A DNA stretch of 64,000 bases from Opitutia bacterium (lineage in GTDB: Bacteria > Verrucomicrobiota > Verrucomicrobiia > Opitutales > Opitutaceae), in contig JACPIS010000025.1 of NCBI GenBank assembly GCA_016187925.1, positions 123,531 to 187,530 of the forward strand, given 5' to 3'. This document shows, one piece after another, positions 54,986-57,135 of this stretch. The notes beneath the pieces were generated by a model. The model saw only the letters and a program-made list of their open reading frames with translations, was not told the origin of the DNA and searched no databases. Each line of letters starts with the position of its first letter. The stretch's first letter is position 1. The position numbers and the translations under genes are program-made.

Positions 54986-55543
54986 ATGCCACAAACCACG
55001 CTCACCCTGCGCGACGGACGCCCGCTGCACGTGCGGCGGCTGGAGCGCACCGACGCGGATGCGTTCGGCTGCTTTCTCGAAAAACTCGGCACCACGACGC
55101 GCTCGTTCTTCGGTCCGCACCCGCTGACCGCCCCCGAGGCCGCGCGACTGTGTGCCGCCCAGCCGGAGCGCGACGCCCTGCGCCTGGTCGTCGCCGAGCC
55201 GGGCGGCCGGATCGTCGCGTATTTCATTCTCGAGCTCGGCCTGCGCGCCGAGGACGCCCAGCGGCTGGCCGCGCGCGGCCAGCCGCTGGACCCCGCGACC
55301 GCCGTCACGCTCGCGCCGGTCGTGGCCGACGATTACCAAAACACCGGCGTGGCCGGCGCCGCGTTCCCGAGCGTGGTGGAGGAGGCCCGCGCCACCGGTC
55401 GGACGCACCTTGTGCTCATGGGCGGCACGCAGGAGCGCAACGCCCGCGCCGTGCGCTTCTACCTCCGCGAAGGTTTTACTCCCCACGGCCGCTTCGAATA
55501 CCCGCCCGGCACCTGGAACATCGACATGACGCGGACGGTGTGA
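54986..55543 (+). CDS. GNAT family N-acetyltransferase
   Basis: LTLRDGRPLHVRRLERTDADAFGCFLEKL...GGTQERNARAVRFYLREGFTPHGRFEYPPGTWNIDMTRTV. Confidence 0.85.
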   Translation: MPQTTLTLRDGRPLHVRRLERTDADAFGCFLEKLGTTTRSFFGPHPLTAPEAARLCAAQPERDALRLVVAEPGGRIVAYFILELGLRAEDAQRLAARGQPLDPATAVTLAPVVADDYQNTGVAGAAFPSVVEEARATGRTHLVLMGGTQERNARAVRFYLREGFTPHGRFEYPPGTWNIDMTRTV

Positions 55544-55710
55544 GGGCTTCAGGTTGTCGCCTGAAATTGAGTCACAGCGGAAACCTTCCTGAAGGTGACT
55601 GAAATACTTAATATCGGACACGCTTCAGCTCTTTCTGCCGTGCAAAGTCTTCATGTCGCCCAGACGTTCTGGCTTGCGCCTCGGCCGCGCGGATATACTG
55701 CGTAGATACA

Positions 55711-55977
55711 ATGAAGCCCACTGCACTCCCCGCCAAGTCCAAGCGCGCCGGCACGTTCAAGCCGGCCGGTTCCCCCATGGGCAAGGTGTTCAAGTCCGGC
55801 AATTCCGCGGCGCTGCGCCTGCCCGCCGGACTGCAGGTGCCGGTGGGCAAGACCTATGCGCTCACGCCCACCGCCTCCGGCTTCGTGGCGGTCGATCCGG
55901 CCGGGCTGGCCAAGCGGCGCAAGGCGCTGGCTGCGCTCTTCGGCTCCGCGTCCGATTTTCCCCTGCGCGAATCCTGA
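55711..55977 (+). CDS. vapB: AbrB/VapB-type antitoxin
   Basis: GKVFKSGNSAALRLPAGLQVPVGKTYALTPTASGFVAVDP; directly upstream of PIN toxin. Confidence 0.82.
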   Translation: MKPTALPAKSKRAGTFKPAGSPMGKVFKSGNSAALRLPAGLQVPVGKTYALTPTASGFVAVDPAGLAKRRKALAALFGSASDFPLRES

Positions 55978-55989
55978 ACGCCGGGCGCC

Positions 55990-56397
55990 GTGATCTACCT
56001 GCCCGACACGAACGTCTTGTCCCGGTTTCTGCGGGGCGGGGAAGCGAACCAGGCGCTGCGCGACCGGCTGCTCGCCGAATTGCCGTTCTGCCGCATTTCC
56101 GCGATCGTCCTGAGCGAACTCGAGTATGGTGCCGCCAAGTCCGGCAACCCCACGCACCGCGAGCGCGTTTCCCGGCTCCGCCGGGTCATGCCGGACGTGG
56201 CCCCCTTCGACGCCGATGCCGCGGCCTATGCCGGCAACGTCCGCGCCTACCTGGCGACGCTCCGGCCCAACGCCCAGCCGATCGGCCCCTGCGATGCGCT
56301 GCTGGCGGGCCAGGCCCTCGCACTCGGAGCCTGCGTCGTTACCGGCAACACCGGTGAGTTTCGTCGCGTGCCCGGATTGCTGGTGGAGGATTGGTGA
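55990..56397 (+). CDS. vapC: VapC-type PIN-domain toxin
   Basis: MIYLPDTNVLSRFLRG; ISAIVLSELEYGAAKS; IGPCDALLAGQALALGACVVTGNTGEFRRVPGLLVEDW; GTG start. Confidence 0.92.
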   Translation: MIYLPDTNVLSRFLRGGEANQALRDRLLAELPFCRISAIVLSELEYGAAKSGNPTHRERVSRLRRVMPDVAPFDADAAAYAGNVRAYLATLRPNAQPIGPCDALLAGQALALGACVVTGNTGEFRRVPGLLVEDW

Positions 56398-56401
56398 CGG
56401 A

Positions 56402-56533
56402 TTCCCCACGGCCGCTTCGAGCACCCGCCCGGCACCTGGAACATCGGCATGACGCGGACGGTGTGAGGGCTTCAGACTGCCGCCTGAAATTGAGCCACGG
56501 CGGGAACATCGGTCAAGGTGACGGAAATACTTA
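56402..56533 (+). repeat. GNAT 3'-end direct repeat (copy R2), 4 nt after vapC stop
   Basis: ttccccacggccgcttcgagcacccgcccggcacctggaacatcggcatgacgcggacggtgtgagggcttcag...gaaatactta vs 55479-55610. Confidence 0.92.
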
Positions 56534-56821
56534 TTGGAACTCGCGCATTGGGCTGACGGGTAGGGACGGACCGCTGGGCCGTCCGTTCTGCTCGGCGCGC
56601 CCAGCGGTCGCGCCCTACCTTAAAGCGTCAGCCTGTCATGCGATTCTCAATAAACCCCGTTTTCAGTCCCGTGACTTGTCCCGGGAAGCCGGCAGGCTGC
56701 GCGCATGAAAAATCTCCGGTCGTTCATCCCGGCGTGTATTGTCTTGGCCCCCGGCTCCGAAGTTGCGGAAGAGACTCACAAGAACCCCAAACCCCAAGGC
56801 CAGACCCTATTTGGTTCCGCC

Positions 56822-57135
56822 CTGGATGCCGCGACCGCCGTCACGCTCGCGCCGGTCGTGGCCGACGATTGCCAAAACACCGGCGTGGCCGGCGCCGCGT
56901 TCCCCAGCGTGGTGGAGGCGGTTCGGGCCACCGGCCGGACGCGCCTCGTGCTCATGGGCGGCACGCAGGAACGCAACGCCCGCGCCGTGCGCTTCTACCT
57001 CCGAGAAGGTTTTGCTCCCCACGGCCGCTTCGAACACCCGCCCGGCACCTGGAACATCGACATGACGCGGGCGGTGTGAGGGCTTCAGATGGCATCCTAT
57101 ATTGAGCTGGGCAGAAGGGTAACTGAAAGACTTTA
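56822..57135 (+). pseudogene. GNAT 3'-end copy R3 (fused in frame to an unrelated N-terminus in ORF 56705-57079)
   Basis: AATAVTLAPVVADDCQNTGVAGAAFPSVVEAVRATGRTRLVLMGGTQERNARAVRFYLREGFAPHGRFEHPPGTWNIDMTRAV vs intact GNAT C-terminus. Confidence 0.92.

What the first reader, a model, noticed from the sequence alone, without database searches (positions are those of the whole stretch)
55286..57135. Second locus with the same design: GNAT 3'-end repeats bracket vapBC and abut a HEPN-like gene
Seen: GNAT gene ends at 55543. Its last codons plus ~65 bp downstream (ending gaaatactta, 55479-55610) recur at 56402-56533, starting 4 nt after the vapC stop. A longer C-terminal copy (from ctgga at 55286) recurs at 56822-57135, directly followed by the low-GC gene 57150-57896. 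Left boundaries vary while the right boundary is nearly the same. This parallels the clpB locus: TA cargo between duplicated host-gene 3' ends. Inference: one insertion process acting at 3' ends of unrelated protein-coding genes.
Basis: partly seen in the sequence, partly recalled or inferred. Interest (0 to 1): 0.82.

Follow-up and report, generated by a model that had tools for sequence, protein, structure and literature searches.

The report
Addiction genes between copied gene tails
Across this bacterium's chromosome, small toxin-antitoxin pairs sit directly behind ordinary genes and are closed off by a spare partial copy of that gene's tail, most likely a footprint of DNA imported from related bacteria by recombination at the gene's conserved end.

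Summary
The GNAT 3' end occurs three times in the whole genome, all here: E1 in the gene, E2 at 56403-56533 (89%), E3 at 56822-57088 (94%). A vapBC pair lies between E1 and E2.

A search for PIN toxins adds a HicBA-plus-VapBC locus. Others carry non-TA cargo. Four of seven VapC-type PIN genes are bracketed, against 4-5% of random small genes (p about 2e-4).

There is no shared att-like core. Left ends vary even at one gene; most copies end at the stop codon. At clpB the copies are not self-duplications: one groups with another species' clpB (bootstrap 100) and a clade of own copies is rejected. The trpS design recurs in two sister species, and another clpB case (AbiE) in a third.

Best reading: additive import by homologous recombination anchored in conserved gene tails, with addiction modules preferentially kept. 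[quoted passage not shown] I class this as a new variant; the molecular step is unproven.

The parts
54986..55543 (+). Full-length GNAT acetyltransferase gene; its 3' end is copy E1
   Evidence: Pfam PF00583 4.6e-6; in the 12 other genomes of the genus found only in G001 at 68%
55286..55610 (+). E1: GNAT 3' end plus 67 nt of 3' UTR, source of the repeats
55711..55977 (+). vapB/MazE-like antitoxin
   Evidence: NCBIfam MazE/PemI 2.6e-4 and VapB 0.01, both below cut-off; position directly before vapC
55990..56397 (+). vapC toxin (PIN domain)
   Evidence: Pfam PIN 4.7e-15; NCBIfam VapC 9.7e-23, below cut-off
56403..56533 (+). E2: copy of GNAT 3' end, -64 to +67 relative to the stop, 88.5% identical, 5 nt after vapC stop
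56534..56821 (+). Spacer with a dispersed hairpin (REP-like) repeat at about 56558-56621 and the 5' start of an unknown ORF fused to E3
   Evidence: many genomic copies of positions 25-88; ORF 56705-57079
56822..57088 (+). E3: copy of GNAT 3' end, -258 to +9, 94.0%, reading frame intact; diverged homology to 57146
57150..57896 (-). Orphan gene with an RNxxxH (HEPN-type) motif
   Evidence: 2 distant homologues, R116/N117/H121 invariant; helical model of moderate confidence
57928..59103 (-). D-serine dehydratase-like gene, conserved neighbour to the right
   Evidence: Pfam; in 11 of 13 genomes of the genus
16213..18852 (+). clpB, full length (first copy of its 3' end)
   Evidence: Pfam
19064..19275 (+). 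clpB 3'-end copy E2, 87% to own gene
   Evidence: tree
19292..19891 (-). Fic-domain toxin
   Evidence: Pfam Fic 7.9e-13
19888..20304 (-). HTH antitoxin
   Evidence: Pfam HTH_3 6.7e-11
20405..20760 (+). clpB 3'-end copy E3 with 192 nt of downstream DNA; closer to G012's clpB than to own
20763..20924 (+). clpB 3'-end copy E4; first 80 nt 96%, last third 52% to own
20932..21717 (+). DUF2971 gene abutting E4 (PADLOC candidate-defence family PDC-S31)

Best explanation
These loci are footprints of additive import of foreign DNA. A fragment carrying a gene's 3' end plus a toxin-antitoxin module from a related cell recombines by homology in the recipient's conserved gene tail. The full-length gene stays intact, and a second partial copy of the tail is left beyond the cargo. 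Repeating this produces chains such as gene-TA-tail-TA-tail. TA modules are over-represented because they are addictive and resist later deletion, while the spare tail decays. Shown: the architecture, its recurrence, the TA enrichment, the foreign origin of clpB copy E3, lack of a fixed boundary, and the same site with and without cargo in relatives. Inferred: uptake of DNA, one-sided (illegitimate at the other end) or single-crossover integration, and selection by addiction.
For: Scan of 2.42 Mb finds about a dozen partial 3'-end copies downstream of their genes, 7 with TA cargo; the PIN search adds a gene-HicBA-copy-VapBC-copy locus. 4 of 7 VapC-type PINs bracketed against 21 of 484 other random small genes, Fisher p = 1.7e-4. 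clpB E3 groups with G012's clpB (100/98.6); E1+E3 as a clade rejected (p-AU 0.002), all four copies as a clade rejected (p-AU 0.023). Coding differences between copies fall on third positions, 39/30/87, p about 1e-8, so much divergence arose in working genes. trpS-TA-tail also in G002 and G006; clpB-AbiE-tail in G008. Spare copy next to native flank: the DUF721 E2 flank matches relatives' rpsO upstream at 82-93%. G003 keeps only a 50-nt Fic remnant after clpB. ComEC present.
Against: No donor molecule or intermediate was seen. At GNAT itself no empty site in a close relative exists, so the order of events there is inferred. TA stop codons lie within about 17 nt of the next tail copy at five or more junctions, tighter than random illegitimate joints predict. 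The two G008 clpB copies group together (95/93), so own duplication is possible there. clpB E1+E2 as a clade is not rejected (p-AU 0.13). Most tail alignments are too short for trees. Mosaic patterns run in both directions. ComEC alone does not show competence.
Confidence: 0.6

Rival explanations
1. Local duplication of the gene's own 3' end (unequal exchange or slippage), followed by decay of the spare copy and independent capture of TA modules between the copies.
For: DUF721 copies are 97% and the two G008 clpB copies group together; PhnA and tgt differences are not third-position biased.
Against: clpB E3 is from another lineage; third-position bias overall is more than half-decay predicts (p = 0.0015); it does not explain why TA genes are so often between the copies.
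Confidence: 0.18
2. Site-specific integration at gene 3' ends by elements that carry a replacement tail, as prophage e14 does at icd, with the integrase acting in trans or lost.
For: Most homology ends within about 13 nt of the stop codon, as expected for a replacement tail; the target gene is always restored.
Against: Left boundaries differ at one gene (clpB -162, about -209, -322; trpS -45, -69, -120; GNAT -64, -258); different genes share no core; no integrase seen in the cargo.
Confidence: 0.1
3. Whole plasmids or conjugative elements integrated by single crossover through a host gene tail and were then eroded, leaving only addiction modules.
For: Same end product; TA modules are typical plasmid genes; a 20-kb interval with sulfatase genes separates clpB from a tail copy in G007.
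Against: No replication, relaxase or partition remnants noticed in the intervals; both junctions sit tight against the TA genes at unrelated loci.
Confidence: 0.12

Closest known systems
Insertion with long target duplication of restriction-modification systems (Nobusato et al. 2000; Furuta et al. 2010; known to me here through PMC3874152, PMC3031569, PMC1643837)
   Same: Addictive gene module inserted alone, bracketed by long (order 100 bp) direct repeats of variable length, no transposase, compared with an empty site in relatives.
   Different: Cargo here is toxin-antitoxin (also Fic, AbiE, zeta, HicBA); the repeat is nearly always a gene's 3' end; at clpB the copies are alleles of different species; copies accrete serially.
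Homology-facilitated illegitimate recombination (PMC3240628 and references there)
   Same: One homologous anchor plus non-homologous joining adds foreign DNA next to a conserved gene.
   Different: Described as a laboratory process; here the recipient's tail is duplicated, and the joint was not observed.
Orphan immunity-gene arrays of Vibrio cholerae T6SS and Rhs tips (PMC5361080)
   Same: Serial displacement of 3' ends by incoming modules anchored on conserved sequence; alleles from different strains.
   Different: There the displaced piece is part of the effector itself; here housekeeping genes are the anchors and TA pairs the cargo.
3'-end-targeting integrative elements (e14/icd type; from general knowledge)
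   Same: Target gene kept intact by a replacement tail, displaced tail left as pseudogene.
   Different: No integrase, no fixed core, variable boundary.

Membership tests
Insertion with long target duplication | Inserted module between direct repeats of roughly 100 bp and variable length | tested here: met
   47-357 nt copies at a dozen loci
Insertion with long target duplication | Relative shows a single-copy site without insert | tested here: met
   Several relatives have DUF721 before rpsO with no vapBC; most relatives have trpS without the TA; no empty site available for GNAT
Insertion with long target duplication | Cargo is a restriction-modification system | tested here: not met
   Cargo is TA or other genes
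Homology-facilitated illegitimate recombination | Foreign DNA joined at a homologous anchor | tested here: inconclusive
   clpB E3 allele is foreign, which fits; the joint itself was not seen and other loci are too short to test
Homology-facilitated illegitimate recombination | Microhomology at the non-homologous joint | not testable with these tools
   Needs donor and recipient sequences
3'-end-targeting integrative element | Fixed recombination core per target gene | tested here: not met
   Left boundaries scatter within clpB, trpS and GNAT
3'-end-targeting integrative element | Integrase gene in the element | tested here: not met
   None among cargo ORFs of the TA loci; most non-TA cargo judged by eye
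VapBC toxin-antitoxin | PIN-domain toxin behind a small antitoxin gene | tested here: met
   PIN 4.7e-15; antitoxin match weak; activity not tested
HEPN proteins | Rx4-6H motif in a helical fold | tested here: inconclusive
   RNQQVH with R, N and H invariant in 3 homologues; no significant PDB fold match

The most novel reading that the evidence does not exclude
Tail-bracketed TA modules are a class of mobile unit that needs no recombinase of its own: recombination between the two tails excises a circle of TA plus one tail, which re-enters the same conserved gene in another cell by ordinary homologous recombination, with addiction selecting against loss.
Probability: 0.2. Interest if true: 0.8.

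Novelty: new variant of a known kind. Interest (0 to 1): 0.6.

Why it matters
How solitary chromosomal toxin-antitoxin modules move without a mobile element is a long-standing question. Here one genome gives about ten natural footprints with a readable boundary, foreign alleles at clpB, and sister species carrying the same site with and without cargo. Gene-tail copies also give a simple, annotation-free signature for finding newly acquired addiction and defence modules in other genomes.

Tried and rejected
att-like core: boundaries compared at 16 junctions, none shared. tRNA targets: aragorn finds none in the intergenic repeat pairs. Chance repeats: excluded by the genome-wide search. Paralogue pairs and repeats inside one gene (MacB-type permeases and others) were set aside from the scan. 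A left-high/right-low mosaic as a signature of a one-sided event: seen at ruvB, DUF721 and clpB E4 but reversed at folC and the C27 locus, so not used as proof. HEPN assignment by fold: no significant match. In one search the clpB_E2 row aligned to itself and was discarded; one search gives the right boundaries. The PIN family search missed a further PIN gene at C41:96419, whose 46-nt repeat is marginal; counting it as unbracketed gives 4 of 8.

Full report
What is there. The window encodes a GNAT acetyltransferase (54986-55543), then a vapB-like gene and a PIN-domain vapC, then two partial copies of the GNAT 3' end (E2 56403-56533, 88.5%; E3 56822-57088, 94.0%), then an orphan gene on the other strand and a conserved D-serine dehydratase-like gene. 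The three tails are the only copies in the 3,995,137-base genome. E3 keeps an intact reading frame of 85 codons. E2 and E3 share a His with the only GNAT relative in the genus (G001), where the full gene has Tyr, so the spare copies are not simply decayed versions of the working gene.

The same design elsewhere. After setting aside paralogues and high-copy repeats, partial copies of a gene's 3' end lie downstream of: GNAT (vapBC), clpB (Fic/HTH, then DUF2971), DUF721 (vapBC, 97%), folC (ParE, a short third copy, Phd-VapC, 94%), ruvB (zeta-like), trpS (DUF5615/DUF433), a 65-aa gene (RelE-type toxin and Unstab_antitox), and with non-TA cargo SufT, PhnA, a ppdK-like gene, tgt and a thioesterase. 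Cargo families were checked in Pfam. The HicB-like gene, the RelE-type toxin at C40:99091 and most non-TA cargo were named by eye. Copies of gene 5' ends upstream are fewer (3 or 4; 12 against 3, two-sided p = 0.035).

Toxin-antitoxin enrichment. A family search finds eight PIN genes in the genome, of which seven are VapC-type. Four are bracketed by gene-tail copies: GNAT, DUF721, folC and a locus on contig C27 that reads gene (DUF7305)-HicBA-tail copy-VapBC-tail copy. Random small genes are bracketed by any direct repeat in 23 of 486 cases, and that blind sample itself is rich in TA genes. Fisher p = 1.7e-4. The brackets make up 0.86% of the sequence scanned.

Boundaries. Left ends range from -45 to -322 relative to the stop and differ among copies of the same gene. 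Right ends are usually within about 13 nt of the stop codon; the exceptions are GNAT (+67), clpB E3 (+192) and trpS of G006 (+24). There is therefore no common core. Where a toxin or antitoxin stop codon faces the next tail, the gap is 0-17 nt (GNAT, DUF721, folC, ruvB, both C27 junctions). This tightness is not explained.

Origin of the copies. At clpB, ten relatives allow a tree. Copy E3 groups with the clpB of G012 (100/98.6), E4 weakly with G006 (83/84). A clade of E1 with E3 is rejected (p-AU 0.002), as is a clade of all four copies (p-AU 0.023). The E1+E3 test was chosen after seeing the identities, so its p-value is somewhat optimistic. In G008 the two copies group together, so own duplication remains possible there. 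Summed over loci, coding differences between full gene and copies fall on codon positions 39/30/87, more third-position biased than a decaying duplicate predicts under rough assumed rates. ruvB copies are identical for 55 nt and then differ, and E1's tail and following bases resemble G005.

Relatives. The trpS-TA-tail design is shared with G002 and G006, with different left ends. DUF721 carries a homologous vapBC in G006 without a spare tail, and no TA in several others; the flank after the G000 spare tail is the native rpsO upstream region. G008 has clpB-AbiE-tail. G003 keeps a 50-nt remnant of the Fic gene behind clpB. G005 has a vapBC about 0.7 kb behind ruvB. In G007 a clpB tail lies 20 kb away with sulfatase genes between. 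Gain and loss at the same gene ends is thus recurrent in the genus.

Mechanism. The data fit additive import anchored by homology in gene tails, either one-sided (homologous on one side, illegitimate on the other) or by single crossover of a circle; I cannot separate these. A ComEC gene is present, which permits but does not show DNA uptake. The literature search found the same geometry for restriction-modification systems in Helicobacter ('long and variable' target duplications, PMC3874152, PMC3031569, PMC1643837) and a serial-displacement model for T6SS immunity arrays (PMC5361080). No held paper joins toxin-antitoxin with homology-facilitated illegitimate recombination; most subscription papers are not held.

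Limits. 60% of the genome scanned; home-made gene calls; short alignments; genome names not given (an Opitutaceae-like bacterium is my guess only); TA activity untested; no empty GNAT site in a close relative.

Noticed in passing
57150-57896: Orphan gene (two distant homologues among 5.8 billion proteins) with an invariant RNxxxH motif; possible HEPN RNase-type toxin, fold not confirmed.
   Followed up: partly
56558-56621 (also 39229-39255): Dispersed hairpin repeat with many copies in the genome and in sister species, REP-like.
   Followed up: no
12975-13073, 47897-47995, 62213-62311: Second dispersed element with inverted ends TGTCATTCTGAGCG...CGCTCAGAATGACA.
   Followed up: no
G000 contig C22:44316-45286: DUF6883/DUF4926 pair between 186-bp repeats (95%) just upstream of an ORF6N-like gene; the repeat's own origin is unknown.
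   Followed up: partly
G000 contig C6:40819-43484: 229-bp repeat (93%) brackets VOC, cytochrome c, TetR and SnoaL-like genes; parent gene of the repeat not found.
   Followed up: no
53531-55543 versus locus L046: MFS and GNAT genes have swapped order relative to G001, beside the same D-serine dehydratase gene.
   Followed up: partly
L054/L055 (G007 contig C2:555253 and 575570): clpB 3' copy 20 kb from clpB with sulfatase-type genes between.
   Followed up: partly
G000 contig C27 around 294262 (L238): Two different TA modules (HicBA, VapBC) in a row, each followed by a copy of the same gene tail.
   Followed up: partly
55286-57146, 18855-20762: At GNAT three different sequences join near +67, and at clpB two copies end at +192; whether these joints are inherited or repeated is unexplained.
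   Followed up: no
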